Virus record (IMG/VR): IMGVR_UViG_3300046455_000477 | Location: 1-64,000 of that record | Strand: one strand, 5' to 3' | Source: a virus | Length of the DNA: 64,000 nt | Shown here: positions 1 through 61,215 of the stretch, piece by piece | Layout of the letters: the number at the start of each line of letters is the position of its first letter | Position numbering within the stretch: position 1 is the first letter of the stretch | Program-made: the position numbers and the translations under genes | The notes under the pieces: generated by a model | What the model saw: only the letters and a program-made list of their open reading frames with translations | Told to the model about the DNA's origin: nothing | Databases searched by the model: none

Positions 1-6
1 GCGGCC

Positions 7-41028: not shown

Positions 41029-41237
41029 CGCTCGGCAAGCCACTTCGGCATCGTCACGCGAACGTGCTGGACTGCGACGAGGTGCCTCGCGCCGTAGTGC
41101 GGCTTGCGGTCCTCGTCCCAGAGGTGCTCGATGGTCACGAGCTTCTTCGGCAGGTAGTTGCCAGTGAGGATCTTGTAGGCTCGCGGGGTCTCGCGCTTGG
41201 TGTCGAGAACGGTCTGGAAGGTCACGGTAGCGGTCAC
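41025..41237 (-). CDS. Small basic hypothetical protein
   Basis: A 70-residue basic protein. GTG 41237 follows the conserved CCGCCAGGAGA leader, which fixes the start. Sequence TFQTVLDTKRETPRAYKILT, LPKKLVTIEHLWDED and HVRVTMPKWLAER suggests a small beta domain. It lies after the 64-residue gene and shares its promoter. Unknown function; size and leader place it with the accessory genes. Confidence 0.55.
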   Translation of the reverse strand: MTATVTFQTVLDTKRETPRAYKILTGNYLPKKLVTIEHLWDEDRKPHYGARHLVAVQHVRVTMPKWLAER

Positions 41238-44324: not shown

Positions 44325-44999
44325 TCACAGGCTCCAGTCGCACTCCAGGCGGACGCGGTTCTCGTGGAACGCGGCCCACGCGACGCGGACGCTATTCTCC
44401 ATCAGGTTGGTGCACTGGCTGGTAGACGCCGACAGCCAGCGGCTCTTGGCCATCAGCTCGGTGACGACCATCTCGTAGAGGTTGTCGAACCGCTCGCGGG
44501 TCGTGAGTGGCTGGCCGTTCTCGTTGGTCTTCTCGCCGAGGATCCCGACCCAGTGGGCGACGGCGTCGTAGACGTCGGCCTTGGCGGCGTTCTCGAAGTG
44601 CTTGTCGGCCCAGCCCATCACGGAGCACAGGCTGTTTCCGCGTGCCACTGCCTTCACAAGGTCGGCGTGGAGGCGCTGCAGATCGTCCTTGGCGACCGCG
44701 GACGCGGCGCTCAGGCGGCTCGGGAGCGTCGCCCAGGCGCGGTCCAGAGTCTCTGCGGCGATGAGCGGCCGGAGGTTGTCGATGGCCGACTGGAGAGTCT
44801 CGAGCGAATAGGTGGCGTTCTTCTCCATTGCTTCCTGGTAGTATCCGTCGGTCGTCGCCTTCGTCAGGATGCGGTGGAGGAGGGACAGTCGCTGGCGGGC
44901 GTCGCCCTTCACGGAGACGTCTCTCAGGACGCTGAGGTCGGCGCGAAGGTCTGCGAGGGCGTTGGAGCGGCGCTCGGCACGGGGGATGCGATTGGACAC
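44325..44999 (-). CDS. Helical hypothetical protein
   Basis: A 224-residue, almost entirely helical protein from GTG 44999 after CCGCCAGGAGA. It contains LADLRADLSVLRDVSVKGDA, a long middle helix and RFDNLYEMVVTELMAKSRWL. No catalytic motif. It shares its transcript with the 93-residue gene upstream. A structural or regulatory partner role is possible. Confidence 0.5.
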   Translation of the reverse strand: MSNRIPRAERRSNALADLRADLSVLRDVSVKGDARQRLSLLHRILTKATTDGYYQEAMEKNATYSLETLQSAIDNLRPLIAAETLDRAWATLPSRLSAASAVAKDDLQRLHADLVKAVARGNSLCSVMGWADKHFENAAKADVYDAVAHWVGILGEKTNENGQPLTTRERFDNLYEMVVTELMAKSRWLSASTSQCTNLMENSVRVAWAAFHENRVRLECDWSL

Positions 45000-47508: not shown

Positions 47509-48528
47509 TTAGACTGCCACCTCGCTCACGCCGCCCTGCGGCCGGTCGATCGAGGATCGCCACCACCGCTTCCCCCCGCACTCGGCGCAGCGAAACCGCT
47601 GAGGGTTTGAGGTAGCTCTGCTTCCGTAGTCGCTGGCCTCCAACCACGCATGGGAACAGCCCGCAGCCGAGCCGTGGGATCGGGCCACCGCGTCGTGTAC
47701 CCAGTGGCCTCGGCGGTGATCCACCGGTCCCCTGCGGTCGCCCTGCGCCCCTTGCGGGGGTGACGGGTGCGGCGGGTAGACGCGGGGGACGAGGTGAGTG
47801 ACCGAGTGGTGGGGGGTCGTCCGGACGGAGCGACCGCCGCTGAACGTTCGCTTGGCGCTTATCTCCACCATGGTTGGACTGAACAGATCGCCCGTCAGCG
47901 CCCCGAGCAGAGCGATGATGTTCCGGAGGTCGGCCGAGCCCTCCTTCAGGATCGGGATGTTCAGGTCCGCGAGGTCGAACCCACCCTGAATCTTCAGGAG
48001 CCGCGCCGAGTGGTGATCCGCCAGGGAGCCCAGCAGCTCCGGCGGGAGTCGGTTAGCGGCCGAACCCCAGAGGTACTCGTCCGGATTCATTCGGATGATC
48101 TCTGCCATTCGGGCGCGATCCTCGGTTGCCCACGGAACGTGAAGCTTGTAGGCGACCGGCCAGATAACGGCTCCGGTCACCGTCGGCCCATCGGCAAAGC
48201 AGTAGACGTCGTCGCCGACGACCAGGTAGCCGACACGGGCGTCCATCGTTGGGCTTCCCGGATACCCGTTCGCTTTATTCCAGAACGCTCGGTTGTCGAC
48301 CTCCATCCACGTCGCCTGATGAGGTGAGCGGACGGTTGGGGCGATGGCGGCGATCAGCTCCGGGTGATCGTGGATCACCTGCCCGATCAGCTCGGAGGCG
48401 CGACTGTCGAAGACGTACTTCTCGGCTCTGTGGACGGCTTTGATGCCGTCCGGATATCTGGTTCCGTACTTTCCACCAAAGAATATCGGACGGGTCGTGA
48501 CCATGTCCGCGAGCGTCAGATTTGTCAT
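47509..48528 (-). CDS. Hypothetical protein with C-terminal zinc ribbon
   Basis: A 339-residue protein. Residues 1-220 are a folded domain (RPIFFGGKYGTRYPDGIKAV, VGDDVYCFADGPTVTG, YLWGSAANRLPPELLGSLAD). A Pro/His-rich linker follows, then a C-terminal ribbon with GCSHAW ... FRCAECGGKRWW (C-x-H and C-x2-C). ATG 48528 has GGAGG upstream. The N-terminal family is not recognised. Confidence 0.55.
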   Translation of the reverse strand: MTNLTLADMVTTRPIFFGGKYGTRYPDGIKAVHRAEKYVFDSRASELIGQVIHDHPELIAAIAPTVRSPHQATWMEVDNRAFWNKANGYPGSPTMDARVGYLVVGDDVYCFADGPTVTGAVIWPVAYKLHVPWATEDRARMAEIIRMNPDEYLWGSAANRLPPELLGSLADHHSARLLKIQGGFDLADLNIPILKEGSADLRNIIALLGALTGDLFSPTMVEISAKRTFSGGRSVRTTPHHSVTHLVPRVYPPHPSPPQGAQGDRRGPVDHRRGHWVHDAVARSHGSAAGCSHAWLEASDYGSRATSNPQRFRCAECGGKRWWRSSIDRPQGGVSEVAV

Positions 48529-48547
48529 GCAAGGCCTCCATGCGGAA

Positions 48548-48569
48548 ACCGGGGGGCAAGCCCCCCGGT
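48548..48569 (-). terminator. Hairpin ACCGGGGGGC-AA-GCCCCCCGGT
   Basis: A ten-base-pair perfect stem just after the stop of the gene at 48577 (read leftward), followed by TTTCC. It probably ends that transcript before the next gene. Confidence 0.6.
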
Positions 48570-48576
48570 CGTTTCC

Positions 48577-49155
48577 TCAGCCAGCCGGAGTGATCTCGAT
48601 CCAGCCCTTGCGAACCGCCTTGCGGAGGGTGCGGCGAGCCTTGGAGCCGACGAGCTCGATGAACTCCCCGACGGTCATGCCAGACTTCAGGAGCGAGCGG
48701 CGGCGGAGGCTGTCGGAGCCGTCCCGACCGCTCCACGAGGTGGCGAGAACCGTGATGACGTCGTCGTGATCGGCGGTCTTGGCGCGGCTCGCGCCCTCCT
48801 CGTCGTCGTCGGCGTCGGCGTTCTCCATCTCGGCCTCGATTGCCTTCATCTCGTCCTCGAGGGTATTCACGTCGGCCTCGATGACGTCCAGCTCGGCCTT
48901 GATGGCGTCCAGCTCGGTTTCGTCGGCCTCGGCCTCGTCGTCACTGAGGTCTTCACAAGCGCAGAGGTTGCCCGACTCGTCGATGAAGAACTCGTCGGCG
49001 TGCTTGGAGAGGAAAGCCTCGATGAAGTCGCGAAGCTGTTCGGCCTTTTGGCGAGAGAGGGTCGACGCGGCGGGCGTCCGGTCCTCGTTGTGCTCGCAGA
49101 TCGTCTGAACGAGGGACACGAGAACGGGCTTGGAAGCGGTGCTGAGGTCGTACAC
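48577..49155 (-). CDS. Acidic coiled-coil protein with basic C-terminal domain
   Basis: A 192-residue protein from GTG 49155 after CCGCCAGGAGA. A very acidic coiled coil spans about 70-125 (ELDAIKAELDVIEADVNTLE); the C-terminal 60 residues are basic (DSLRRRSLLKSGMTVGEFIE, RRTLRKAVRKGWIEI) and could bind DNA. The split resembles histone-like or regulator proteins. No family recognised. Confidence 0.5.
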   Translation of the reverse strand: MYDLSTASKPVLVSLVQTICEHNEDRTPAASTLSRQKAEQLRDFIEAFLSKHADEFFIDESGNLCACEDLSDDEAEADETELDAIKAELDVIEADVNTLEDEMKAIEAEMENADADDDEEGASRAKTADHDDVITVLATSWSGRDGSDSLRRRSLLKSGMTVGEFIELVGSKARRTLRKAVRKGWIEITPAG

Positions 49156-49205
49156 GGCGAAGTCTCCTGGCGGAGGGTTAGGGGCCAAACCGGCCCGGTA
49201 GATGA

Positions 49206-49235
49206 GTTCTAACCGTCCTCGGGAGACCGCGAAAG
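49206..49235 (-). promoter_or_regulatory. Phage promoter-like element upstream of 49155
   Basis: CTTTCG, 18 bases, TAGAAC on the - strand, preceded by AGAATTTG. It overlaps the end of the nuclease gene. The second hexamer is the most diverged of the set. Confidence 0.45.
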
Positions 49236-49700
49236 CAAATTCTGCGAAAGAATATTTCGTTCCTGGGGGTTGGTTAGGACGGCGGATATCTCCCGCCAGC
49301 TCCAGTTTGCCGGACCACCCTTCCAAACTCGGCCGCTGGCGGGAACATTATTCAGACCCCCGAGGGCGAGCGCCGCCGCGTGAGCTCCGCTCACTATGTA
49401 TAGTTGGTCGACGGGGTCGCCGCGCCGAGGTCCTCCGTCGTGTCGGCGGCGCACAGCGATCCATACGATCCCTCCGTGGCGGACGCGGCGGCTGATCCAG
49501 GCGACCTGGAGCGGGCGGAGGTCCACGGTGAAGCTGCTCGTCTCCTTGAACTCAATCCAGAACTCCGTTCCTGCGCTGCAGGAGTTCGAGTCCGGGATGC
49601 CGGGGGTTACTCCGCCGCTCTCCACAGCCACCCAGTCGAAATCGCGAAGCTGTTGGCGAAACAGTCCTCGCAGTCCTCCGTCGCGCTTGGTGGCCGTCAG
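49209..49700 (-). CDS. PD-(D/E)XK nuclease, VRR-NUC-like
   Basis: A 163-residue protein whose core GVTPGIPDSN ... GTEFWIEFKETSSF shows the acidic PD and ExK residues of PD-(D/E)XK nucleases, followed by LRPLQVAWISRRVRHGG. This is the layout of phage VRR-NUC-like or Holliday-junction-type nucleases. The start is unusual: the only candidate near the end of the previous gene is CTG 49700 (CTGA overlap, AAGGAG five bases upstream); no ATG, GTG or TTG is well placed. It follows the polymerase and probably acts in replication or repair. Confidence 0.65.
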   Translation of the reverse strand: MTATKRDGGLRGLFRQQLRDFDWVAVESGGVTPGIPDSNSCSAGTEFWIEFKETSSFTVDLRPLQVAWISRRVRHGGIVWIAVRRRHDGGPRRGDPVDQLYIVSGAHAAALALGGLNNVPASGRVWKGGPANWSWREISAVLTNPQERNILSQNLLSRSPEDG

Positions 49701-49879
49701 ATCAGCTCCTTCTCCTTGGCGAGCCAAACGGGTATCACCATGACACCCTGTTCCTTGTCCCACTCGCACTGAGACTTGGGGAGCCACACGAGCCGGAGGC
49801 CGTCCGAGAACCTCCAGGCTTTCTCGGTCTCGACCGTTATCTCTCCGGCTATGTCGACGAGAACCTTTTCCTTGGCCAT
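49697..49879 (-). CDS. Small hypothetical protein between polymerase and nuclease
   Basis: A 60-residue protein, MAKEKVLVDIAGEITVETEK, RLVWLPKSQCEWDKEQGVMV. ATG 49879 overlaps the polymerase stop. Similar short beta-rich proteins lie near polymerase genes in other phages. Function unknown. Confidence 0.5.
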   Translation of the reverse strand: MAKEKVLVDIAGEITVETEKAWRFSDGLRLVWLPKSQCEWDKEQGVMVIPVWLAKEKELI

Positions 49880-51825
49880 CACGCGAGAACCTTTCTGTAG
49901 TCTGTCTTAGCCTTGCCCCAGGTGCTGCCAACTTCTAGGTCCACGGTCACGGGCATCACGAGCTTGACCGCGTCGATCATCAGCTCGCCTATCGTCTCCA
50001 CCTCTCGGGCAGTACCCACCGACGCCCCGATCTCGTCGTGTAGGGTGACCAGGGGGACGATACCGGCCCGATGGATAGCGACCATGGCCCGCTTCACCTG
50101 TCGCGCGGCGGAACCCTGAATAACGCTGTTGCCTGCCTGATAGGCGAAGGCGCGCTCCAGCGGCTGATCGGGCCACCGCCGCTCAGCCTCCTCCCGGTAG
50201 GCAAATCCCCCGGGAACGCGGTGCTTCTTCGGTTGCCAGAGCGGATAGTGCCGACGAGCGCCGTCTATCATCCGAACGAACCCGTTCACCTTGGCCTGAT
50301 GCTCGGCGCACTTGGATATTCCGGAGATGTACGGGATACGGGCGTGATACAGATTCCACAGCTCCGCCGCCTCCTCCTCGGGTTTGTTAAGGTGAACGGC
50401 GAGCAGCTTTGCCGACATTCGGTAGGTCAGTCCCTGGTTCAGGTCCTTGGCCTCCCTTCGGGTCAGGCCGAGGACCTTTGCCCCGAGGGAGTGGAAGTCC
50501 GGGTCCGGGTCCGTTCGGTAGTAGCGGACGACGCCCTCGATGTCCCCCATCTCTATCCCGAGGCGCTTGGCGAGGTTCCTGCACTTGTAGGCATAGTGGA
50601 CGTTGAGGCGCGGCTCCTGACTCTTGAAGTCGGCGCTCAGCCAGTGCTGGCCATTCTCCGGTAGAAAGGCGTTGCGGACCAGCGGAGCGAGGACCTCGTC
50701 CCGGCTCGGCATCTGCTGGAGCGGGGGATTGGAGTACGAGAAGCGGTGCGTCACTGCCCTGAGCTGACGTATCTCGGCGTGGACGCGGCCCATCGTCTGG
50801 TAGTCCCGGATGTAGAACCCTAGGAACTTCTCGTGAAGATCGTGGAGCTGCCTGACGCGCCGGACCTTCCTGCCGAGCGGGTGAGTGAGCCTGTCCAGCC
50901 ACTGAGCCTGAAACGATGGAGCGTTCGTCTTTGCGGTGCGGGGATACGCGATACCCTCCTCGTCGAACAGCTTGGACAGCCGCTCGGCGGAGCGCAGGTC
51001 CTCGATCGTGCAGCCACCGCGCCAGGGGACCGTGATGGTGGACATAACCTCCTCCTCCATCCGCCGAACCTGATCCATTGCCGCGTTCACGCCATCCATG
51101 GAAACCCTGATGCCGCGCCGACGCATGGCGTTCGTTACTGGGTAGAGATCCATCTCGGTGCGGTAGGCTTCGACCGTGTCCTCCTCCACAATCGTCGGCC
51201 AGAGAACCCTGCAGAGCCGTAGTGTGGAGGCCGCGTCCTGCTCGGCGTAGGGACCGACGTAGCGCGCCGGTAGACGGTGAATACCCGCCTTGACGTTCTT
51301 GTGGATTCCTGCGGACGCGGCTGCCTCGCGCAGAAGCGTCTCGTCCTTCCCGAGGATACCGGCGCGGGCGCAGCATGCGTCCAGGCTGTAGGACTGGTGG
51401 TTCTCGTCGGCGATGAAGGCCATCGTACCGCCATCCTCGGCCCGCTCCGGCCAGACGCTGCATCCGTGAGTCTGGAGCCATCCCATGTCGTACGATATGT
51501 TGAAAAAGTGGACGCGACAGTGCCGAAGAAGGTGCTCAACCCAGGCGATAACCTCCTCCATGGGGCGGTTCTCCGTTTCCGGGTGCCTCACCGGAACGTA
51601 GATGGCCTGATCACCCCAGGCCACCGACACGCCGCAGAGGTGTCCGTTACGGTCCACCCAGCCCGGACCCCGCTCCTGGGCGAGACCCCGGTCGTAGGTC
51701 TCCGTGTCCAGGCCGATGTCTATGCCCGACAGCATGGGAAGCGGACCCTGGGGCGGCTTCCAGCTCGACTCAGGGACGAACAGGGACCGCTGCCCCTCCG
51801 CCCACAGGGTTCGGGTGGACGTCAC
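49879..51825 (-). CDS. DNA polymerase, family A, with 3-5 exonuclease
   Basis: A 648-residue family A polymerase. Exonuclease motifs: GLDTET, FFNISYDMGWL and YAEQDAAST. Polymerase motif A is LSADFKSQEPRL (about 395), with the metal Asp and sugar-checking Glu kept. Motif B is RREAKDLNQGLTYRMSA (about 455): Arg, Lys and Tyr are kept but the position of E. coli Phe762 is Gln. Motif C is TLHDEIG (about 595). No 5-3 exonuclease domain. GTG 51825 overlaps the synthase stop (GTGA). It would replicate the genome, using modified dUTP if the neighbouring genes make it. Confidence 0.85.
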   Translation of the reverse strand: MTSTRTLWAEGQRSLFVPESSWKPPQGPLPMLSGIDIGLDTETYDRGLAQERGPGWVDRNGHLCGVSVAWGDQAIYVPVRHPETENRPMEEVIAWVEHLLRHCRVHFFNISYDMGWLQTHGCSVWPERAEDGGTMAFIADENHQSYSLDACCARAGILGKDETLLREAAASAGIHKNVKAGIHRLPARYVGPYAEQDAASTLRLCRVLWPTIVEEDTVEAYRTEMDLYPVTNAMRRRGIRVSMDGVNAAMDQVRRMEEEVMSTITVPWRGGCTIEDLRSAERLSKLFDEEGIAYPRTAKTNAPSFQAQWLDRLTHPLGRKVRRVRQLHDLHEKFLGFYIRDYQTMGRVHAEIRQLRAVTHRFSYSNPPLQQMPSRDEVLAPLVRNAFLPENGQHWLSADFKSQEPRLNVHYAYKCRNLAKRLGIEMGDIEGVVRYYRTDPDPDFHSLGAKVLGLTRREAKDLNQGLTYRMSAKLLAVHLNKPEEEAAELWNLYHARIPYISGISKCAEHQAKVNGFVRMIDGARRHYPLWQPKKHRVPGGFAYREEAERRWPDQPLERAFAYQAGNSVIQGSAARQVKRAMVAIHRAGIVPLVTLHDEIGASVGTAREVETIGELMIDAVKLVMPVTVDLEVGSTWGKAKTDYRKVLA

Positions 51826-52838
51826 TTCGTTTCTCCACCCGTCCGCGTCTTTATCCACTGGATCGCCGCCTCCCTCCAGTCCGTGTGAACGACGTCCCCG
51901 CAGAGCATCAGTGCTGTGTTCCACTTCTTCTCGCGTATCGCATCGTGCACGAGGGACACGGGAACTAGCAGGTTCCTGAAGAGGGCCGACCGTCCGGGGG
52001 GCTCCCCGCTGGGCTTCTCCAGCCAGGCGTCCAGCTCCTGCGCAAACGTGACCGGATAGCAGTCAGCAAACAGCGGTGATGCAGCCACCCGCCCGTCCGC
52101 GTAGAGATCCCCCCGGTCATCGTGCCGGTCGTAGAGGTGGAGCGTGTTCTCGTAGGCGTGGAGGTTGTGACTGAACTGATTGAAGCACCCGACAACGGTC
52201 CCGAGCCGCCAGGCCAGATACTCCTGCAGCACCGTGAAGTGAACCGCGTTCGCGCCGTAGGCTCCCCATATAGCGTCGTTGGATCGGCAGCAGACGGTGA
52301 GATCCAGAGCGGAAACGCCGCCCTTCTCCATTATCCTCAGGTAGATCGTCGTGTTGCAGGGGATATCCGGGGGGGCGGAAACGCCGGATGCAGTGGAGTC
52401 CAGGCTCGGATCGTACATCTGTATCACTGCGCGGCGGGAGCCAGGATCGTTTCGCAGGTGATCGACGACCCACTCTATCTGGTCGAAGTCCTCGCAGCCG
52501 CGCCCGACCCAGTTTCGCCAGCGGTGACCGTAGGCTCCGTGCAGAACTCCGTTGTCCGCGAACCGTTGGCCGAAGTCGCTGACGTATCGGTCCAGGAACG
52601 CCGCGTCACGCCTTCCGGCCAGCATCCACATCGCCTCGAAGAGGTGGAAGAATGGGTTGGCTCGCCGCTTGCGATTGAACAGAACCCGCTCCGTGGGCCT
52701 CCGGTATATCGTTAACACCGGCTTCGGATAGACGATGGCCCGACCGTTTCGGGTGTTCTCCCACTTCCCCGAAACGAGAAGCTCCTCCATCATTACGGAG
52801 AAAACGTCGTTGACGTTTCGTTGAGTAAACGTACTCAT
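51822..52838 (-). CDS. Thymidylate-synthase homologue, putative dUMP hydroxymethylase
   Basis: A 338-residue protein with the thymidylate synthase fold: AGRRDAAFLDRYVSDFG, HGAYGHRWRNWVG, the catalytic PCNTTIYLRI cysteine, CRSNDAIWGAYGANAVHF and FSHNLHAYENT. It is longer and more diverged than cellular ThyA, and lies with a hydroxymethyl-dU kinase, so hydroxymethyl-dUMP formation is more likely than dTMP formation. ATG 52838 (MSTFTQRNVND) follows AGAGGAATGG; a 48-bp duplication creates a second in-frame start at 52886. The reaction is inferred from context. Confidence 0.7.
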   Translation of the reverse strand: MSTFTQRNVNDVFSVMMEELLVSGKWENTRNGRAIVYPKPVLTIYRRPTERVLFNRKRRANPFFHLFEAMWMLAGRRDAAFLDRYVSDFGQRFADNGVLHGAYGHRWRNWVGRGCEDFDQIEWVVDHLRNDPGSRRAVIQMYDPSLDSTASGVSAPPDIPCNTTIYLRIMEKGGVSALDLTVCCRSNDAIWGAYGANAVHFTVLQEYLAWRLGTVVGCFNQFSHNLHAYENTLHLYDRHDDRGDLYADGRVAASPLFADCYPVTFAQELDAWLEKPSGEPPGRSALFRNLLVPVSLVHDAIREKKWNTALMLCGDVVHTDWREAAIQWIKTRTGGETK

Positions 52839-52929
52839 GACTCCATTCCTCTTCAACCCGGTTACTCTACGCCTCCACGGTCTCATGACTCCATTCCTCT
52901 CCAACCCGGTTACTCTACGCCTCCACGGT
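52834..52929 (-). repeat. 48-bp tandem duplication at the synthase start
   Basis: Two copies (52834-52881 and 52882-52929) differ at one base. Each contains a ribosome site, an ATG in the same frame and CTACGCCTCCACGG, the end of the UDG-like gene. The unit is a multiple of three, so both ATGs open the synthase frame. Confidence 0.85.
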
Positions 52930-53616
52930 CTCCTGCGCTAGGACTGATCCGTAGAGGCGGACAACCTGAGAGGCGTGACTGCTCCTGCCTATCGTCGACC
53001 ATATGTGGACACACGCCCGGTGCTCGATATCACTGCAGCGTCGGACAACGCTACAGGAGCTCATTGGTATGGTTTCCGCGAGCCTGTCCGCAATACCAAC
53101 AACGTCTTGTTCGTACCAAGCAACGGTCAGTGTTTCACCGGAGGCAACCTCCACGACGTCCCCGCAGCGCGGCGGCTCCTTCTCCTCGCAGTATCGGAGG
53201 ACGTCGCTCAGGAATACTCCAACGGCTAGCCGAACCAGCGGATCGTTGTACTCGTGGTTCCGGCCGCTCGGGTGCGGTATCGTTGCCCAGGTTCCCTTCC
53301 ACACGAGCGGGGGGTTCCTAAATCCAAAGGCGTTGGTGGCGTCGGTTCCAACGAGTATCACGATACGGTTCCGTATCATCGTCTCAAGCCACTCCGCACG
53401 CTCGCGTGCTCCGGCCCGGTAGTCGCGGGGGAGCACCCTGTCCGTCAGAAGGTTGTTCCGCTGCGTGCGCTGCAGCCAGTTCTCCATGCTGATGCCGGAG
53501 ACGGTGTTCACCATGCTCCACAGACGATACCCGGCCGACTTCCGATCGTGAGGATGGAAGGCCATCCTAGGGTCGCTGCTCTGGGGATTATTGATGCCAA
53601 GCAGGTATGGTCTCAC
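52915..53616 (-). CDS. Uracil-DNA-glycosylase-superfamily-like protein
   Basis: A 233-residue protein. LLGINNPQSSDPRMAF near the N-terminus, a middle strand RIVILVGTDATNAFG and IPHPSGRNHEYNDP match the two-motif layout of UDG-fold proteins (a Gly-Asn-Pro type first motif and a HPS second motif). In this locus it probably acts on a modified thymine rather than repairing uracil. GTG 53616 overlaps the kinase stop (GTGA). Its last residues lie in the 48-bp duplication. Confidence 0.6.
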   Translation of the reverse strand: MRPYLLGINNPQSSDPRMAFHPHDRKSAGYRLWSMVNTVSGISMENWLQRTQRNNLLTDRVLPRDYRAGARERAEWLETMIRNRIVILVGTDATNAFGFRNPPLVWKGTWATIPHPSGRNHEYNDPLVRLAVGVFLSDVLRYCEEKEPPRCGDVVEVASGETLTVAWYEQDVVGIADRLAETIPMSSCSVVRRCSDIEHRACVHIWSTIGRSSHASQVVRLYGSVLAQETVEA

Positions 53617-54182
53617 AGTATGACTCCCTGTTCTCGCAGCCAGACGACGGCGGTCTCCCTGCAGCCCTCGGTTACGTGAACGCCCATCCGACGGAACCGA
53701 GGTGGATGAAGCCGAAGCGTCCGGTGGCGGTCGGCCGTTGTCTTAGGGTTTAGTGGTGACGTGTTGCCCTTGGCCGAGCGGCGAGCGACGACGCCGTCCA
53801 AGCACTCCTGCAGCGTTAGATTGAAGTAGAACAGACGAACATCGAAGCCCTCCCTGTGAAGGTCCGCTGTTCTGTTCTGCTCACAGCTCAGTATCAGACC
53901 CTCGAAGAACACGTCGTAGAGTCCGTGCAGCTCTCTGGCAAGCTCGAACCACTTGTCGACGCCGCTGATAGTGTCGCACCCCCCGGTCGCGCTCTCGTAG
54001 TGCCCAAGTAGAGCGATGCCACGCTGACCAATACTCAGTGGCTCCCTCGTGTAATACAGGGGCTGCTTTCGCCCTTTAGTGTGAAATGGCTCGGCTGGAG
54101 CGTAGACTCCCTCGGAGTGGAGGACACGCTTCGCGACCGTAGTCTTTCCGGAACCCGATGTGCCACGAACTGATAGTATCAC
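53613..54182 (-). CDS. 5-hydroxymethyl-dU DNA kinase-like P-loop kinase
   Basis: A 189-residue P-loop protein: Walker A GTSGSGKTT at 7-15, then IALLGHYESATGGCDTISGV, a stretch typical of phage 5-hmdU DNA kinases, and DVFFEGLILS. Known members phosphorylate hydroxymethyl-dU in DNA, activating it for replacement by another group. GTG 54182 has AGGAGA upstream. Linked by overlaps to the UDG-like and synthase genes. Confidence 0.8.
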   Translation of the reverse strand: MILSVRGTSGSGKTTVAKRVLHSEGVYAPAEPFHTKGRKQPLYYTREPLSIGQRGIALLGHYESATGGCDTISGVDKWFELARELHGLYDVFFEGLILSCEQNRTADLHREGFDVRLFYFNLTLQECLDGVVARRSAKGNTSPLNPKTTADRHRTLRLHPPRFRRMGVHVTEGCRETAVVWLREQGVIL

Positions 54183-54240
54183 CGGCTGTCTCCTAGTTTG
54201 AGCCGGAGCTATAGTAGCGCGTCCATTCCTCCTGGGCTAG

Positions 54241-55173
54241 TCAAACCCTGGAGGTGAACCTTCGGCGGGTTCCCTGGCCCGTTACCCGAACCCTGATGTA
54301 CTTGAAGTACTCGCAGAGCGTGTGCTCGATGTCCCGCATCTCCAGAGCCAGGTGGCTGCTGGGCCAGTGCCTCGTGAGCCTGGAGAGCTCCAGCAGCTCC
54401 CTCATCTCGGCCACGGTTTGCTCACTTTTCAGCTTTACGTTGTACTGGTACTTCATCGTCGGTTTGCGAGGGTTTCTCACCTGTCTGTCTGACAGGTAAT
54501 TCAGTCCTCGCTGAGCGCCGGGACCGGGGTTCGCCCACGTCATGATGTCCGGCGCATTCTCCAGCAGAGCCGTGTGACGAAGGTCGGTCGTAATCTCGTA
54601 AGCCAGAAACCCGCCCAGGAAGGGAATCTCCGCCAGGAGGTTCGTGAAACTCTCCAGATTGTAAAGTCCATCCCTCACCCTATCCGCTGTATCCCGCCAC
54701 TTGCCCGCGTTGTGGAAGTCGGCGCACAGCCGGGATACTCCGTTCAGCTTGTCCATGCCATCCGGGCTGCGTATCATGTAGGAGCCTGTCACCCACGGAC
54801 CATCCGGATAAACGCGACGTATCGGGGCCGACAGGTCGTGGGCCCGACCACCCTCCAGGAAGTGCTCCCACGGCACCCGGTTCGTCATAAGATCGGGCTG
54901 CTGGAAGACGATCTGGCCGATCTCCGTTTTGTTAAACCACCGAAACACTACCGTTGCCAGAAGCACCTCCGGTGTGTCCCGAAGCCTGTTCCGGACGTTC
55001 TCCCGGAACCAGACGGTGGTCGCGTCCAGTTCCCGATAAACGTTGGTGAAGCGGTTCTCCAGAAGGATGGGATCCTCCGTCCACGGCGGCGGGAGACCGC
55101 TCCGGCGGCGCAGGTACACGTCGTGGCGCTCTCTCGCGAACGCGAAGAAGTCGTTGACCCGCTCCGGCTTCAT
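54241..55173 (-). CDS. Alpha-glutamyl/putrescinyl-thymine pyrophosphorylase-like protein
   Basis: A 310-residue protein. KPERVNDFFAFARERHDVYL, GLPPPWTEDPILLENRFTNV and TTVWFRENVRNR fit the pyrophosphorylase family found in phages with hypermodified thymidine; these proteins displace pyrophosphate from activated hydroxymethyl-dU and attach an amine or amino acid. ATG 55173 is preferred; GTG 55218 would add 15 residues overlapping a hairpin. The final base modification cannot be told from this gene. Confidence 0.7.
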   Translation of the reverse strand: MKPERVNDFFAFARERHDVYLRRRSGLPPPWTEDPILLENRFTNVYRELDATTVWFRENVRNRLRDTPEVLLATVVFRWFNKTEIGQIVFQQPDLMTNRVPWEHFLEGGRAHDLSAPIRRVYPDGPWVTGSYMIRSPDGMDKLNGVSRLCADFHNAGKWRDTADRVRDGLYNLESFTNLLAEIPFLGGFLAYEITTDLRHTALLENAPDIMTWANPGPGAQRGLNYLSDRQVRNPRKPTMKYQYNVKLKSEQTVAEMRELLELSRLTRHWPSSHLALEMRDIEHTLCEYFKYIRVRVTGQGTRRRFTSRV

Positions 55174-55194
55174 GGAGTACCCCCAGAATAGGTG

Positions 55195-55236
55195 CCCCCC
55201 GGCTGTCTCGTCTGGCACGAGGACCGGGGGGCGTGC
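55195..55236 (-). terminator. Hairpin CCCCCCGG ... CCGGGGGG
   Basis: Eight-base arms around a 25-base loop that itself can pair, between the 233-residue gene and the pyrophosphorylase gene. It may attenuate transcription into the modification cassette. The gap 55174-55281 holds nothing else apparent. Confidence 0.45.
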
Positions 55237-55281
55237 GGGCGAGCCGTGCTGCCAAGGCCAAAGCTCGCCTACGCTGCGGAG

Positions 55282-55983
55282 CTAGGCGGTTGCCGTCTCC
55301 TCTTCGTCAGCCTCAGCAGCCTCCGGACGAGGCGGCGGAGGCGGGTTCAGAACGATGAAGCCCTTGTCGTGCATAGCCTCCAGGTAGCGTGCTGCGACAC
55401 CAGCCTTGACCGCTTCGGTCGCCGTCATGCCCTGCTTCAGCTTCAGGAAGCGACCGGCTCGGTTGGAGTCCGCCCGATACGGGAGGTTCTCGGCACCGTA
55501 GGGCCTGCCCTCCTTGTCCGCGCCGAAGTTTATGCTCGCCGTCGGGTCGACGTTGCCGGTTCTCGGCGTGGACGTGGTTTCGTTGGTTGTGCCTGCTTCG
55601 CTCATGCTCCTAGTCTCCTTTCTGCCGTTATTCAATGCGGTCCTGTCTGCCTTCACGATATCCAGGATCTCACCGAGCGTGTCCGGTGGATCCGTTGCCC
55701 GCTCGCACAGTAGCCTCCATATATCCGGAGCCGACTTGTCGCGAGCCAGTCTTGCCTCCGTTACGCCGAGGTGGACCATCGCTTCCTGCAGTATCTGGTT
55801 CTGATAACCGGCGGCACGCATCAGCTTCGTCCACTCCAATCGGTTGTACAGTCTCAGCAGATCATCCGGACTCTCGATGATCGCGTCTCCGTACTGAACG
55901 ACCGGGTGAAGGAACGCATCCCTTTCGCTCTGGAACTTAAGGATGGCGCCGAACCCGCCGCGTGTCACTGCTATACAGACCAT
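55282..55983 (-). CDS. Hypothetical two-part protein with internal start
   Basis: A 233-residue frame from ATG 55983. Residues 1-120 are helical (AIIESPDDLLRLYNRLEWTK, DIWRLLCERATDPPDTLG). At 55605 an in-frame ATG (MSEAGTTNE) has AAGGAG nine bases upstream and would give a 107-residue protein with a folded C-terminal part (RFLKLKQGMTATEAVKAG). Either one protein is made or two genes have lost the stop between them. Function unknown. Confidence 0.5.
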   Translation of the reverse strand: MVCIAVTRGGFGAILKFQSERDAFLHPVVQYGDAIIESPDDLLRLYNRLEWTKLMRAAGYQNQILQEAMVHLGVTEARLARDKSAPDIWRLLCERATDPPDTLGEILDIVKADRTALNNGRKETRSMSEAGTTNETTSTPRTGNVDPTASINFGADKEGRPYGAENLPYRADSNRAGRFLKLKQGMTATEAVKAGVAARYLEAMHDKGFIVLNPPPPPRPEAAEADEEETATA

Positions 55984-55992
55984 AACTCGCTC

Positions 55993-56022
55993 ACTCTAGC
56001 CTCATCGTAATTAAAAGCAAAG
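55993..56022 (-). promoter_or_regulatory. Phage promoter-like element upstream of 55983
   Basis: CTTTGC, 18 bases, TAGAGT on the - strand, preceded by GGGAAAACC. It has no GC leader hairpin, unlike the others. Confidence 0.5.
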
Positions 56023-56059
56023 AGGTTTTCCCGATATCGTGGAAATAAAAATCGGTAAT

Positions 56060-57592
56060 CTATATCTTGTAGTGGAGCGCCGTCTGGGGGGAAACCACGA
56101 TGAGCTCCTCCTTTGCTCGTGTAACCCCGACGTAGAAGACGCGGTGCTCCGCATCCGGGTTGGTCGCGGCCTCCCTGTGAGTGCGGAAAGCCCGATCCCT
56201 CACCAGAACGACGCGATCGGCCTCTCCGCCCTTGGAGCCATGGATCGTGGACAGCCGTATGCGCGGCTCCCTCGTCAGTCGCTCACCGTTGGCGCGGCAC
56301 GCTCTGATGTAGGTCACGTCCTGCTCCGGAATACGGTTGAGGGAGTCGAACCACTCCCTGTCGGTCCGGAGCCCGCCGTCCCTCCGCAGATCATCCATGC
56401 TCACCATCTCATCGGGATGGAACCGGGGAAGCTTCTTGAAGCCTCGGTCCAGTCCTCGCCCGCTGACGATAAGGTCGTACGGACCACTGATGATGTCCGA
56501 AACCCGCTGCGAAACACCATTGCGAAGCCTCTCCCAGCACACGATAGCGTCCAGGGTGGACCGCTTCACCGACGGGCTCCCGTCCCGACTGTAGAGTCTC
56601 CCTGCGGCCCGCAGCTGATTGGCTACGTTGTCCAGGTAGGGACGCCGGTTCCGCGTCAGCACCATCGTCGTCCCGTCCTCCCCCCGGTCCCCGTTCTTGC
56701 TGAAGTCAATGGCAGCGAGGGACGGAGCGCGGCGGGCGATACCCTCCCCCTCGCGAGCGTTCCATACTTTTGGTCGGCGGTGGCTGACCTGCCCGATGAT
56801 CCGGTTCGCAACCGATTGAACCCGGCGCGGGACGCGGTAGGACTGCCCGAGAACGACGACGCTACCAAGCATATCGATCATGGTGTCGGTATCCGCTCCA
56901 GCCCACTGATAGATGGACTGGTCGTCGTCCCCCGCTATGGTGACCGGTATGTCGTCCACAGCCATCGCCCGGATGACGTCCCACTGGATGAGGCTGAGGT
57001 CCTGAGCCTCGTCCACGAGCAGTGCCTCCAGCTTCGGGTATCGCTTCTGCTTCACGAACTGCTCCAGCAGGTCGGTAAAGTCCAGCATCCTGTGGGCATC
57101 CTTGTACTCCCTCATCCCCCGGCTGAACCGCTCCACGCGGCTCCAGTCCAAACCGTCGCTGTCCTCGTTGTAGAGCTGCCGCAGGGGGATGCGGCGGACG
57201 CGGGCCAGGTTATCCATGAAGAGCATGCGGTCCCCCGGCTCGTAACCGCTCCAGGTTCCCTCGTCCATCCGGAAGTGCCCAGTGATCCGCTCGCCTATCC
57301 AGTCCCCAAACTCAGCCATCTTACGGCCCTCGAGAATACTTCCCGCCGAGGCACCGATCTGGCGCATGCACAGCGAGTGGATGGTCCGGAAGTAGGGCAG
57401 GGCGTCCTTCTCCAGCCGAAAGTCCACCGCGACGCGGCCCGCAGCCTCCTCGGCCGCTCGGCGCGTGAAGGTGAGAAACCCGATGCGATCCGGGGGGACG
57501 CCCGCGTCCAGGTGGCCCCGGAGGGTGTCCAGCAGGGTCGTTGTCTTGCCCGTTCCGGGCGGGCCGAGGAGTATCGTCCAGGGGCGGGTCAT
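56060..57592 (-). CDS. UvrD/Rep-like SF1 helicase
   Basis: A 510-residue superfamily 1A helicase: LLGPPGTGKTTTLLDT (Walker A), FLTFTRRAAEEA (Ia), FRTIHSLC, LLVDEAQDLS (II), GDDDQSIYQWAGA (III), and C-terminal LSTIHGSKGGEADRVVLV with FYVGVTRAKEELIVV. It probably unwinds DNA during replication or recombination. ATG 57592 overlaps the previous stop (ATGA); the upstream extension is not needed. Confidence 0.85.
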   Translation of the reverse strand: MTRPWTILLGPPGTGKTTTLLDTLRGHLDAGVPPDRIGFLTFTRRAAEEAAGRVAVDFRLEKDALPYFRTIHSLCMRQIGASAGSILEGRKMAEFGDWIGERITGHFRMDEGTWSGYEPGDRMLFMDNLARVRRIPLRQLYNEDSDGLDWSRVERFSRGMREYKDAHRMLDFTDLLEQFVKQKRYPKLEALLVDEAQDLSLIQWDVIRAMAVDDIPVTIAGDDDQSIYQWAGADTDTMIDMLGSVVVLGQSYRVPRRVQSVANRIIGQVSHRRPKVWNAREGEGIARRAPSLAAIDFSKNGDRGEDGTTMVLTRNRRPYLDNVANQLRAAGRLYSRDGSPSVKRSTLDAIVCWERLRNGVSQRVSDIISGPYDLIVSGRGLDRGFKKLPRFHPDEMVSMDDLRRDGGLRTDREWFDSLNRIPEQDVTYIRACRANGERLTREPRIRLSTIHGSKGGEADRVVLVRDRAFRTHREAATNPDAEHRVFYVGVTRAKEELIVVSPQTALHYKI

Positions 57593-57783
57593 CTCCACAT
57601 ACTCATTCTCTTTACTCTCTCGCAACCTTCCGGACAAGGGTCTTCCTCCACTCTGCTCTCCTCATCGTTCTTTGTGGATTGGACGTGCGGTTTGGACCTA
57701 TCGTAGGACAAGTATGGATTATACTCGTGCGGATTTCCCCTGAAGGGGCGGCGTCTCTCCTTCAGCGTATAATTCTTAGCCAT
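57589..57783 (-). CDS. Small basic hypothetical protein
   Basis: A 64-residue basic, polar protein from ATG 57783: MAKNYTLKERRRPFRGNPHE, acidic middle, and ECPEGCERVKR-like end (DPCPEGCERVKR). It overlaps the 130-residue gene by eight bases and the helicase by four. No domain recognised. Confidence 0.5.
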   Translation of the reverse strand: MAKNYTLKERRRPFRGNPHEYNPYLSYDRSKPHVQSTKNDEESRVEEDPCPEGCERVKRMSMWR

Positions 57784-58168
57784 CAGAGATCTCCGCCGCA
57801 CGAGCCGATGCCTTGGCTGCCTGATTGGCGACGTAGCGACCCTTGGGTGTCAGAGCGTGCCTGACGGGATCCTCCATTCTGCGGACGAGCCCGTGGATCC
57901 TAGCGGACTTCAGTCTGGCACTGACCTGACGCCGATCGCTTCCCTCCGTCTTCTCGATTATCTCGCTGGTGCGCAGCCACGTCCACTGCCGAGGTGTTCG
58001 CCGTCGCTCCACTTCTATGACGTGCATGGCGTAGATCACTGCGCCGCGCTGGTTCGTGCAGCTCTCCTCCACTCCATCGTACGTGTAGTGAAACGAACCC
58101 GGCTTCCGCCGCATCACTCGTTTGTAGGGCTTGCGCTTGCGATCGGTTGGTTCCTGCGTGACATCCAT
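57776..58168 (-). CDS. Winged-helix-like hypothetical protein
   Basis: A 130-residue very basic protein. RTSEIIEKTEGSDRRQVSAR, LKSARIHGLVRRMEDPVRH, ALTPKGRYVANQ reads as a winged helix-turn-helix with wing. It may regulate the downstream genes, which lie in its own transcript from the promoter element at 58197. Confidence 0.55.
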   Translation of the reverse strand: MDVTQEPTDRKRKPYKRVMRRKPGSFHYTYDGVEESCTNQRGAVIYAMHVIEVERRRTPRQWTWLRTSEIIEKTEGSDRRQVSARLKSARIHGLVRRMEDPVRHALTPKGRYVANQAAKASARAAEISDG

Positions 58169-58196
58169 GCTCGCTTTCCCTTTGTTACACCGGAGT

Positions 58197-58227
58197 AACC
58201 TAAACCCTCCGCACGGGCGGGCGAAAG
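58197..58227 (-). promoter_or_regulatory. Phage promoter-like element upstream of 58168
   Basis: CTTTCG, 19 bases, TAGGTT on the - strand, preceded by a run of six A residues. A GTTAC-TCCGGT-GTAAC hairpin follows within the leader. This is in the 123-base gap 58169-58291. Confidence 0.5.
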
Positions 58228-58291
58228 CCTCTTTTTTAGCACGGGTCCTGTGAACCCAGGGCGGATGCTAGGCGGCGCGGCGGCGGCGCGG

Positions 58292-58981
58292 CTAGGCTAC
58301 TATCGGTTCCGGGGGCGTGGCGCCTGTAGCCTCCGTCTGGGGCGTCGCAACGGGGTGATCAGGGGGCGTGACCGGGGGGCTAGCGGCGGCGCGGTGCCGT
58401 AGGATGCTGCGATGAACGTATCGACAAGAGTAGGCATCGGCGAGGGCGTCGTGGGCGTTCGTTATTTCCTTCCGGGCGAAGTGGCGGTATGCCTCACTCA
58501 GCTTGGGTGCCTTGAAACCGTCGATCGAGTAACCGCCTCGCGACGGTATCCCGACGATCGCCGCCGACTCCCGCATCGTGCAGAACAGCTCGGGCCACTC
58601 CAGCCTGGGAACGCGCTGCACGCCGCACACGTGGTCCATAACGGTGAGATCAAACTGAATGTTATGCGCGACGACGACGCGCGCGATACTCAGCATCTGA
58701 CGGAACCGGCCGATGATGAAATCTGGTGGCCAGCCGTAGGCGTCGCACACCTCCGGCGTTATGCCGTGCAGGTCGATCACTCGCTGAGCGATGGGGTTCT
58801 GCCTGATTCCCTGCCAGTGCCGCTGGCTGATGATGCAGGACAGCGTTGTGACGACGCGGTTCTCCGTTGCAAGGATCGCCGCGACCTGCACCGGCAGGGC
58901 GGGGGAGCCTCGCTCGTGATAGTCCGCCGTCTCGGTGTCGAAGTAGAGCGCGGGCCAGCCCCCCGGTTGAGCTCCACTCAT
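58292..58981 (-). CDS. DnaQ-like DEDDh 3-5 exonuclease
   Basis: A 229-residue protein. ALYFDTETADYHERGSPAL is motif I, VVAHNIQFDLTVMD motif II, and NAHDALADAYSC motif III with the DEDDh histidine. It would proofread or trim DNA or RNA ends. ATG 58981 overlaps the reductase stop (ATGA). The C-terminal 30 residues are Pro/Thr-rich, and the last codons (PEPIVA) come from CCGATAGTAGCC, a word also found in the border repeats. Confidence 0.8.
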   Translation of the reverse strand: MSGAQPGGWPALYFDTETADYHERGSPALPVQVAAILATENRVVTTLSCIISQRHWQGIRQNPIAQRVIDLHGITPEVCDAYGWPPDFIIGRFRQMLSIARVVVAHNIQFDLTVMDHVCGVQRVPRLEWPELFCTMRESAAIVGIPSRGGYSIDGFKAPKLSEAYRHFARKEITNAHDALADAYSCRYVHRSILRHRAAASPPVTPPDHPVATPQTEATGATPPEPIVA

Positions 58982-61215
58982 CGCACGTCCTCCTCTATCG
59001 GGCACACGCCGGACGCGCACGCCAGCGCGGCGTCGTCGTAGGCCTCCCGCTCCACCGGAGCGAGGATACGGTTCATCAGGTCGGCGTACTCCGTTGCCGT
59101 GATGGGCTGCTCCGGGACGTATCCGTAGAGCTTCTCGGTGGCGCGCCAGTCCGACGAGGGCATCACTGCACAGCAGCGAATGCGTGGCTGCCACTCCAGA
59201 ATCATCTGCATGAACTCCGGATAACTCACCCGATCAGGCTGATACTTGAGCGTGTAGCTGACCTGATTGTTTCGGCCGCGCTCCTCGCCAAGCCAGTACT
59301 TCTCGAGCAGCATGAGCCAGCGAAAGTTCTCCTCCATCGTCGTGTCGTCGGCCGACGTGACGTTGTCACCCATCAGCTCGGCGATCGGCTGTCGGGTCGG
59401 GAATCCAACGACGACCTGACCGTGGTAGCGCTCCCCGATGTCCTTCACCGGATACCCGCGCGCAACCAGATCCGGAAGGTCGGCGGCGGTCTTGTTGTAC
59501 TGGACCCACCTGAGATAGTAGGGACTGGCTGGCAGGTGACCACCCTCGGTGCAGTTCATCACCTTGGAGACGGTTCCGCTAGGCTTGATGGTCGTGACCG
59601 TGTGAGGGGTGACCATACCCACGACGGCGGAGTACTCGGCCGCAGCGGTCTCCGCAGCGCTGCGCAGCTCCCCGACGAAGTTCCAGAACTCGGTGGACCG
59701 GGGGGTTGGATCCCGTATCAGGTCCTGGAACGTGAGGCCGAAGAGGTTCCAGGCAAACTCGTGGATTCCGGTCAGACTGACCCCGATGCGGTTCGTTCGC
59801 TGAACCTCGCTGGCGTAGTCGGATTTCATCAGGTTGCAGCGCACGAGGAACCGCGCCATCAGGTCGGCGGCGTCCAGCGCCTCCAGCTTGCTGTGGACCT
59901 GGGCGAGGCAGAGGTCTCCTATAACGCAGTAGCCTCCGTAGAGGGCTAGGACGATCTCTCCGCAGGGGTTCGTTATGAACTGATAGGGAACGCGCCGGAC
60001 GTGGGTCAGGACGTTGTCGACCATCTCCCGCGTTCGCCGATGCAGCGACGGATACGTGTCCAGGCTGATGTAGTTGCTGCCGTCGATGGCGTCCATTCCA
60101 TCCCGGTTGTCGTTGAGCATGTCGACGTTGATGAACCCCGGCTCCCCGGTCCGGTCCCAGTAGGCGGCGTTCACGGCGGCTTCGAACACCCGGCGAGCAT
60201 GCGTGTGCTGGGGCTCCGCCGCCTCCCGCCAGAACTTCTCGTCTACCAGCACCGAGTTATTGGCTGACCACAGGAACCCGCCGCGCTTCAGGTCGATGAA
60301 CTCGATCACGTCACGGTCCCGCCAGTACTTCGTCGCCATGCGGGCGCTGCGTCGGGCACCGCCGACGTGGACGCACGCCGCGAGGTAGTGGTCAATGAAC
60401 ATGGCCTGCTTCCAGGGGGCCATCCCGGAGCCCTTCACGGAGGCCACCCGCTGAAGTGCCCACATTGTGGGGATCGGGCCTGACGACGGGCGGTTCTGCA
60501 TACCCCGGATGGGCATCCCCTTCCCGCGCACCTCCGAGAAGTCGAAGATGAAGAGCTTGTCGGCGTGCTTCTCCTGCCAGGCGGCGGTCTCGAGGATCTC
60601 CACGACCTTCGTCCAGCCGTCCCGACTGTCCTCCACAACGAACCACCGGACGTCCTCGCTGTCCGACGGATACTTGTGCCGGGCCTCGCGCAGCGGCTCC
60701 ATGGATCCCTGGAAGAGGTCGGGGTGGAAGTCCGGGTGAGAGTCCGACATAACGAGGCGCACGTCCGGCATGCGATCCCAGTTCACGCGGCAGGTGGCCG
60801 ACGAGTAGTCCCGCCCCACCCCCGCACCGCACAGAAGGAGCTTGAACGACATGAAGCTGAACAGAGCGGTCGCGCAGTTGGAGTGCAGCTCCATGATGCG
60901 ATTCACCTGACCAGCGTCGCCGTGCTGAAGATGTCGGCCAGAGGTGGAGAACACCCCCGCCCTGGCCAGCTCCAGCGTTCTGTGGAGCTCGTTGCGGGCG
61001 CGGGCGGCGTCCAGTGCCGCGTAGCGCTGCGTTGCGAGGCTTCGGTCGAGCCGAGGGTCCAGCGCGAAGTTCCCCCGGACAACGTCCTCGATGCGCTCCG
61101 CCCAGGTCTGCAGCCGCCCGGAGGGCGTCGGCCTGGAGTACTTGTTCTCGAACACGGCCCGAGGCATACCCGCCGGAACCACGAACTCTCTTGCTGAGTC
61201 TACTGCGTCATTCAT
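58978..61215 (-). CDS. nrdJ: Class II ribonucleoside-triphosphate reductase
   Basis: A 745-residue monomeric-type reductase. The active-site loop NPCGEIVLALYG (about 413) carries the radical Cys and Glu; the N-terminal MELHSNCATALFSFM provides a redox Cys; the C-terminal CASGVCP is the thioredoxin-exchangeable pair. The lack of an R2 or activase gene and the similarity to monomeric RTPR fit adenosylcobalamin dependence. It makes dNTPs for phage DNA. ATG 61215; no intein or intron seen. Confidence 0.85.
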   Translation of the reverse strand: MNDAVDSAREFVVPAGMPRAVFENKYSRPTPSGRLQTWAERIEDVVRGNFALDPRLDRSLATQRYAALDAARARNELHRTLELARAGVFSTSGRHLQHGDAGQVNRIMELHSNCATALFSFMSFKLLLCGAGVGRDYSSATCRVNWDRMPDVRLVMSDSHPDFHPDLFQGSMEPLREARHKYPSDSEDVRWFVVEDSRDGWTKVVEILETAAWQEKHADKLFIFDFSEVRGKGMPIRGMQNRPSSGPIPTMWALQRVASVKGSGMAPWKQAMFIDHYLAACVHVGGARRSARMATKYWRDRDVIEFIDLKRGGFLWSANNSVLVDEKFWREAAEPQHTHARRVFEAAVNAAYWDRTGEPGFINVDMLNDNRDGMDAIDGSNYISLDTYPSLHRRTREMVDNVLTHVRRVPYQFITNPCGEIVLALYGGYCVIGDLCLAQVHSKLEALDAADLMARFLVRCNLMKSDYASEVQRTNRIGVSLTGIHEFAWNLFGLTFQDLIRDPTPRSTEFWNFVGELRSAAETAAAEYSAVVGMVTPHTVTTIKPSGTVSKVMNCTEGGHLPASPYYLRWVQYNKTAADLPDLVARGYPVKDIGERYHGQVVVGFPTRQPIAELMGDNVTSADDTTMEENFRWLMLLEKYWLGEERGRNNQVSYTLKYQPDRVSYPEFMQMILEWQPRIRCCAVMPSSDWRATEKLYGYVPEQPITATEYADLMNRILAPVEREAYDDAALACASGVCPIEEDVR

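What the first reader, a model, noticed from the sequence alone, without database searches (positions are those of the whole stretch)
51822..55173. Probable thymidine hypermodification cassette
Seen: synthase homologue, UDG-fold protein, P-loop kinase with GHYESATGGCDTI, and a pyrophosphorylase-like protein, joined by overlaps next to a family A polymerase. Known: phages with hypermodified thymidine use a dUMP hydroxymethylase, 5-hmdU DNA kinase and alpha-glutamyl/putrescinyl-thymine pyrophosphorylase-type proteins. Inference: this phage replaces part of its thymine, and no aminotransferase, radical SAM or acetyltransferase partner is visible here, so the end product may be simple or new, with the UDG-like protein replacing a missing step.
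Basis: partly seen in the sequence, partly recalled or inferred. Interest (0 to 1): 0.8.

Follow-up and report, generated by a model that had tools for sequence, protein, structure and literature searches.

The report
Kinase-only thymidine hypermodification cassette
This phage carries a real set of genes for chemically altering the thymine in its DNA, but its complete genome shows no recognisable homologue of the enzyme that every chemically studied relative tested uses to attach an amino acid, so its altered base may simply carry a phosphate or be something not yet described.

Summary
The four genes are real and form a thymidine-hypermodification module. They are a dUMP-hydroxymethylase-type synthase, a 5-hmdU DNA kinase, a PF18723 ('aGPT-PPlase1') protein and a TDG/SMUG1-like UDG-fold protein, next to a family A polymerase. 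Nearest studied relatives are Pseudomonas phages PaMx11 and M6. The window belongs to a 75.3-kb record with an exact 127-bp terminal overlap and an ORF reading through the join, so the genome is complete. In it I find no PF18724 amino acid:DNA transferase, radical SAM, PLP, FAD-lyase, GNAT or glycosyltransferase homologue. PF18724 is present in all four chemically characterised phages tested (M6, PaMx11, ViI, phiW-14). Among relatives PF18723 stays while the neighbouring slot holds a kinase or a glycosyltransferase, so PF18723 is not merely a kinase domain. The UDG-like gene also occurs in M6, which has the full pathway, and beside glycosyltransferases, so it does not replace the missing step. 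The likely product is 5-phosphomethyl-dU or an unidentified derivative. New variant of a known kind.

The parts
54241..55173 (-). PF18723 (HMUDK_hel / aGPT-PPlase clade 1) protein, 310 aa; all-helical, HhH-DNA-glycosylase-like predicted fold; distant paralogue of the glycinyltransferase family
   Evidence: PF18723 E 2.5e-44; 45% to PaMx11 gp50; model pLDDT 94.8; Foldseek to OGG2/EndoIII and to 8z2n, all weak
53613..54182 (-). 5-hmdU DNA kinase family P-loop protein, 189 aa
   Evidence: 40% to PaMx11 gp49; 61% to kinase of IMGVR_UViG_3300044608_002771; invariant RGxxGSGK, GxY, GxD, EG
52915..53616 (-). UDG-superfamily protein of TDG/SMUG1/MUG type, 233 aa, motifs GINNPQSSDP and PHPSGRN; C-terminal ~80 aa without counterpart in relatives and poorly modelled
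   Evidence: PF03167 E 1e-4; phrog_12275; Foldseek TDG 1e-3, SMUG1 1e-3; family alignment
51822..52838 (-). thymidylate-synthase homologue, predicted dUMP hydroxymethylase, 338 aa
   Evidence: phrog_5131 E 1.6e-85; below every NCBIfam TS cut-off; PCN and GANAVHF (Asn) motifs shared with M6/PaMx11; Asp in CMP hydroxymethylase MilA
52834..52932 (-). 48-bp tandem duplication (2.1 copies, 98%) repeating the 3' end of the UDG-like gene, the ribosome-binding site and the synthase start, giving a second in-frame ATG 16 codons upstream
49879..51924 (-). family A DNA polymerase with 3'-5' exonuclease region, downstream neighbour
   Evidence: PF00476 E 1.7e-39; 29% to PaMx11 gp55

Best explanation
This is a kinase-type thymidine hypermodification module without the amino acid:DNA transferase. 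The synthase homologue makes 5-hydroxymethyl-dUMP, which is incorporated into DNA as 5-hmdU (inferred by homology). The P-loop kinase phosphorylates a subset of 5-hmdU in DNA to 5-phosphomethyl-dU (5-PmdU; inferred by homology). PF18723, a probably base-flipping HhH-DNA-glycosylase-like protein distantly related to the 5-PmdU glycinyltransferase, acts on or presents the hydroxymethyl or phosphomethyl base (inferred from fold and co-occurrence). No glycine or other amino acid is added by the known route, because PF18724 is absent from the complete genome (shown to profile sensitivity). The end state is therefore 5-PmdU itself or an unidentified PF18723-dependent derivative. The UDG-like protein is an accessory TDG/SMUG1-type glycosylase, perhaps removing uracil or unmodified 5-hmdU from unprotected DNA; it is not a biosynthetic step.
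For: Homology and motifs. Complete genome: exact 127-bp end overlap and an ORF through the join. No PF18724, rSAM (116), TAGT (67), clade glycosyltransferase A11 (122) or other tailoring enzyme. Positive controls: PF18724 found in M6, PaMx11, ViI, phiW-14, Sonora, Pam3, Epa5, Simon. SPO1 (5-hmU, negative control) has neither PF18723, PF18724 nor the kinase, so PF18723 tracks hypermodification rather than hmU synthesis. The same kinase-without-transferase set occurs in the nearest relative G007/G012, whose kinase is 61% identical, the best conserved gene compared; window and L022 PF18723 form a supported pair (95/89).
Against: No chemistry has been measured. 5-PmdU is known only as an intermediate, and phosphorylated hmU templates transcribe poorly with E. 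coli RNA polymerase (PMC6457204), which would be costly as a stable end state. Most other kinase-bearing, PF18724-less records of the clade carry a glycosyltransferase or glycosyltransferase-like protein, so a partner may be expected here. ORFs without any family match (e.g. 39946-41043, 44325-44999, 47509-48528) could hide a transferase. A host enzyme could complete the pathway.
Confidence: 0.68

Rival explanations
1. PF18723 itself is a transferase that replaces the missing PF18724 enzyme: it displaces the phosphate of 5-PmdU with an unidentified nucleophile, giving a new thymidine adduct.
For: The PF18723 fold resembles HhH DNA glycosylases and, weakly, the PaMx11 5-PmdU glycinyltransferase 8z2n (TM 0.43-0.47); BFVD lists ADDT proteins as next neighbours; profile-profile alignment joins GPFMAYEVVTDLRHT with FGPWIGFK and EMRDIEHTLCE with NIQEVETVLCK. 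It is retained here without PF18724.
Against: M6, PaMx11, ViI and phiW-14 carry both proteins. PF18723 also occurs in records with no kinase and therefore presumably no 5-PmdU. The relation to PF18724 is weak (hhalign probability 3%, E 0.013; Foldseek E 1.7-2.0).
Confidence: 0.3
2. The pathway is completed by an unrecognised phage ORF or by a host enzyme, and the product is an ordinary amino-acid-derived hypermodified thymidine.
For: Several ORFs have no family match; p365 (39946-41043) is shared with G007 and absent from the phage collection.
Against: In all reference phages the transferase is encoded by the phage and recognised by profile; nearly every ORF of about 100 aa or more was scanned with Pfam without a transferase.
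Confidence: 0.2
3. Decayed remnant: the phage has lost hypermodification and contains 5-hmdU or plain thymidine.
For: No transferase, no HD nucleotidase and no dCMP deaminase homologue.
Against: All four ORFs are intact with conserved motifs; the kinase is 61% identical in a relative where the other genes compared are 28-56%; the same reduced set is found in both contigs of that relative.
Confidence: 0.1
4. The synthase is an ordinary thymidylate synthase and the kinase a nucleotide kinase; the set serves nucleotide supply only.
For: The single-protein Pfam match of the kinase is best to generic AAA_33.
Against: The synthase is below every NCBIfam TS cut-off and groups with M6/PaMx11 hydroxymethylases; the AAA_33 match covers only the P-loop; PF18723 was found with the synthase and other modification genes in nearly all records examined.
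Confidence: 0.04

Closest known systems
Pseudomonas phage PaMx11 cassette (gp46 5-PmdU glycinyltransferase, gp47 FAD, gp48 acetyltransferase, gp49 kinase, gp50 PF18723, gp51 synthase)
   Same: Kinase (40%), PF18723 (45%) and synthase (37%) adjacent to a family A polymerase
   Different: The window phage lacks gp46, gp47, gp48, HD and dCMP deaminase homologues; it adds a UDG-like gene; gene order is PF18723-kinase-UDG-synthase rather than kinase-PF18723-synthase
Pseudomonas phage M6 (5-NedU) cassette gp48-gp58
   Same: UDG-like gp48, kinase gp54, PF18723 gp55 and synthase gp58 are homologous
   Different: M6 also has ADDT gp51, PLP gp52 and radical SAM gp53; all are absent here
IMG/VR phages G007/G012 (3300044608_002771, 3300044631_003039)
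   Same: Same replication-arm genes; PF18723, UDG-like, synthase and kinase (61%), with no PF18724, TAGT, rSAM or A11 glycosyltransferase found
   Different: The kinase lies about 14 kb from PF18723; neither contig is shown to be complete, and the two are near-identical copies of one phage
IMG/VR glycosyltransferase-type sisters (L013, L014, L028, L036 and others)
   Same: UvrD-PF18723-(UDG)-synthase-PolA order
   Different: Kinase replaced by a TET-associated glycosyltransferase (with an NDP-sugar epimerase in L013 and L028) or by a GT/FkbM pair

Membership tests
5-hmdU-based thymidine hypermodification (M6/PaMx11/ViI/phiW-14 kind) | dUMP hydroxymethylase-type synthase | tested here: met
   phrog_5131 E 1.6e-85; PCN and GANAVHF motifs as in M6/PaMx11; activity not tested
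5-hmdU-based thymidine hypermodification (M6/PaMx11/ViI/phiW-14 kind) | 5-hmdU DNA kinase | tested here: met
   40% to PaMx11 gp49, catalytic motifs conserved; Pfam HMUDK itself only E 0.037
5-hmdU-based thymidine hypermodification (M6/PaMx11/ViI/phiW-14 kind) | PF18724 amino acid:DNA transferase | tested here: not met
   absent from the complete genome while all characterised controls are positive
5-hmdU-based thymidine hypermodification (M6/PaMx11/ViI/phiW-14 kind) | tailoring enzymes (radical SAM, PLP, FAD lyase, acetyltransferase) | tested here: not met
5-hmdU-based thymidine hypermodification (M6/PaMx11/ViI/phiW-14 kind) | modified thymidine in virion DNA | not testable with these tools
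   needs LC-MS
PF18723 (HMUDK_hel / aGPT-PPlase1) | profile match above curated cut-off | tested here: met
   152 bits against cut-off 25
PF18723 (HMUDK_hel / aGPT-PPlase1) | helical domain or partner of a 5-hmdU DNA kinase (as named) | tested here: inconclusive
   kinase present here, but 10 of 23 PF18723-bearing records searched have no kinase match
UDG superfamily, TDG/SMUG1/MUG type | fold and the two active-site motifs | tested here: met
   Foldseek TDG/SMUG1/MUG; GMNNP- and PHPSGxN-type motifs across the family, degenerate in a few members
UDG superfamily, TDG/SMUG1/MUG type | excision of U or 5-hmU | not tested
   assay needed

The most novel reading that the evidence does not exclude
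The stable virion modification is a phosphorylated base, 5-phosphomethyl-2'-deoxyuridine, so that a species known only as a biosynthetic intermediate is the end product.
Probability: 0.3. Interest if true: 0.78.

Novelty: new variant of a known kind. Interest (0 to 1): 0.57.

Why it matters
It separates three things that are usually bundled: making 5-hmdU, phosphorylating it in DNA, and adding an amino acid. A complete genome that keeps the kinase without the transferase makes it directly testable whether phospho-thymine can be a final DNA modification. The survey also shows that PF18723, named after the kinase, persists where the kinase is replaced by a glycosyltransferase, so its role should be rethought. 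And it supplies a clade of phages in which a TDG/SMUG1-like glycosylase, a family known to attack 5-hmU, is carried beside the 5-hmU pathway.

Tried and rejected
Nucleotide search of the phage collection with window 48000-60000: no match. Sequence search of the PDB for kinase, PF18723 and UDG-like protein: nothing significant. Searches of viral contigs with the UDG-like protein and the kinase as single queries: none; alignment queries worked. Key papers could not be read: look-ups of Lee 2022, Iyer 2013 and Wen 2024 failed and Lee 2018 was not looked up; statements on M6/PaMx11 chemistry rest on the PDB 8z2n title, held secondary papers and general knowledge. Rejected: the UDG-like protein as replacement of a step; PF18723 as an hmdUMP kinase for the nucleotide pool (SPO1, which has 5-hmU, lacks it); PF18723 as an obligate kinase subunit. 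SP10 and phiRSL1 were not in the collection. ORF 47509-48528 has homologues only in three cyanophages, so it is an unlikely partner.
Full report
WHAT IS THERE. On the minus strand, in transcription order: PF18723 protein (55173-54241), P-loop kinase (54182-53613), UDG-like protein (53616-52915), thymidylate-synthase homologue (start most likely ATG 52838, to 51822), then a family A DNA polymerase. Upstream lie a UvrD helicase, a cobalamin-dependent ribonucleotide reductase and an AEP-type primase. The closest chemically studied relatives are PaMx11 (kinase 40%, PF18723 45%, synthase 37%) and M6 (UDG-like 31%, PF18723 35%, synthase 37%).

EACH PROTEIN. The synthase groups with phage hydroxymethylases (phrog_5131 E 1.6e-85), scores below every NCBIfam thymidylate synthase cut-off and shares PCN and GANAVHF motifs with M6 and PaMx11. 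The Asn in GANAVHF lies where the CMP hydroxymethylase MilA has Asp (alignment), which fits uridylate rather than cytidylate specificity; that reading of the position is my knowledge of the family. The UDG-like protein has a TDG/SMUG1/MUG fold with GINNP and PHPSGRN motifs conserved in most of a family of 26. TDG and SMUG1 excise 5-hmU in other organisms (PMC6449724).

PF18723 IS NOT THE KNOWN TRANSFERASE. Phage genes called aGPT-PPlase fall here in two Pfam families: PF18723 (clade 1; M6 gp55, PaMx11 gp50, this phage) and PF18724 'amino acid:DNA transferase' (clade 2; M6 gp51, PaMx11 gp46) (naming in PMC9476957). PaMx11 gp46 is the 5-PmdU glycinyltransferase by the title of PDB 8z2n. The model of the window's PF18723 protein (pLDDT 94.8) has its best, weak, Foldseek matches to HhH DNA glycosylases and a weak match to 8z2n (TM 0.43-0.47, E 1.7-2.0); hhalign aligns the two families with E 0.013 but 3% probability. 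I read this as distant paralogy on a glycosylase-like fold; it is suggestive, not proven.

THE MISSING STEP. PF18724 is found in every reference phage with the kinase that was tested (M6, PaMx11, ViI, phiW-14, Sonora, Pam3, RHph_I65, Simon, Epa5) and not in this record. The record is complete: its first 127 bases equal its last 127, and a long ORF reads through the join, so the absence is genome-wide. Profiles of M6/PaMx11-type radical SAM, PLP, FAD, GNAT, HD and dCMP deaminase also find nothing, nor do PF04055 and PF20691, and Pfam scans of nearly all larger ORFs show no transferase or tailoring enzyme. Limits: small ORFs were not all scanned, and several ORFs have no family.

THE SURVEY. PF18723 relatives in IMG/VR and kinase relatives were typed for gene content and checked over whole records. 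In a supported clade of 30 PF18723 proteins that includes the window (100/95), the common order is UvrD - PF18723 - [slot] - UDG-like - synthase - PolA. The slot holds either the kinase or a TET-associated glycosyltransferase, with an epimerase in L013 and L028; an outlying group has another glycosyltransferase with an FkbM methyltransferase. Among 22 whole records, kinase and TAGT tend to exclude each other (2 with both; Fisher p 0.007, 0.015 after removing near-duplicates; relatedness is not corrected for). Ten of 23 records carry PF18723 with no kinase match. UDG-like genes are in 21 of 29 clade loci against 2 of 60 outside. In the clade, six other kinase-bearing records without PF18724 have a glycosyltransferase-like protein (alignment A11; the glycosyltransferase label is my reading, no Pfam family matched it), some with a SPASM radical SAM protein, and two have TAGT. 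One short contig (G011) was not tested for A11 by whole record, but its near-identical relatives carry it. Only the window phage and its sister G007/G012 show the kinase with none of these. Of the genes compared with that sister the kinase is the most conserved (61% against 28-56%), which argues against decay, although horizontal transfer could also give this.

CONTROLS ON PF18723. SPO1, whose DNA contains 5-hmU (PMC5977210), has neither PF18723, PF18724 nor the kinase. So PF18723 belongs to hypermodification rather than to making hmdUTP, and since it stays without the kinase it is not simply a kinase domain. The Microbacterium phage Pikmin also has PF18723 without PF18724 or kinase.

HOW IT LIKELY WORKS. 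Shown: gene content, motifs, folds to the stated confidence, absence of PF18724. Inferred: hmdUMP synthesis, incorporation as 5-hmdU, phosphorylation in DNA to 5-PmdU. Open: whether 5-PmdU is the end, or PF18723 or an unrecognised ORF converts it. Against a stable phosphate end state: phosphorylating hmU in a template lowered E. coli RNA polymerase transcription to 37% of unmodified DNA (PMC6457204). For its plausibility: a phage could apply it late, before packaging, or only at some sites; this is speculation. The UDG-like protein probably polices uracil or unmodified 5-hmU, which capping would protect; also inference.

VERDICT. New variant of a known kind. The literature on combinatorial hypermodification cassettes (Lee 2022) could not be read here, so part of the survey may already be described there.

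Noticed in passing
window 52834-52932: 48-bp tandem duplication (98%) copies the UDG-like 3' end, ribosome-binding site and synthase start, creating two in-frame start codons 16 codons apart; looks recent.
   Followed up: partly
record ends (window 1-127 = genome 75203-75329): Exact 127-bp terminal overlap: the 75-kb record is a closed genome, with a long ORF next to the portal region reading through the join.
   Followed up: yes
window 52915-53160: C-terminal ~80 residues of the UDG-like protein have no counterpart in relatives and are modelled with low confidence (mostly pLDDT under 60).
   Followed up: no
genome 68062-68823 (L003 8062-8823, just beyond the window): Likely the source of a PEP-CTERM sorting-signal match (E 1.4e-7 among 50 scanned ORFs), just before the large terminase; unusual in a phage.
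   Followed up: no
L005 2833-3339 (Pseudomonas phage M6 gp48): Hypothetical protein of the well-studied phage M6 is a member of the same UDG-like family; also phiM9 gp41 and other Rhizobium T4-like phages.
   Followed up: partly
L129 6775-7884; L013 12099-12596: Relatives carry a myo-inositol-1-phosphate synthase (L129) and a pyrimidine dimer DNA glycosylase (L013, PF03013) inside the modification slot.
   Followed up: no
L030 15054-15887 and L129 4438-5370: A second, very divergent PF18723 copy in the same phage as a normal one; the two second copies group together in the tree.
   Followed up: no
L133, L135, L137, L140, L146: Loci with two adjacent kinase-family hits and no PF18723 nearby.
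   Followed up: no
window 58978-61215: Class II (cobalamin-dependent) ribonucleotide reductase in place of the NrdA/NrdB pair of PaMx11.
   Followed up: no
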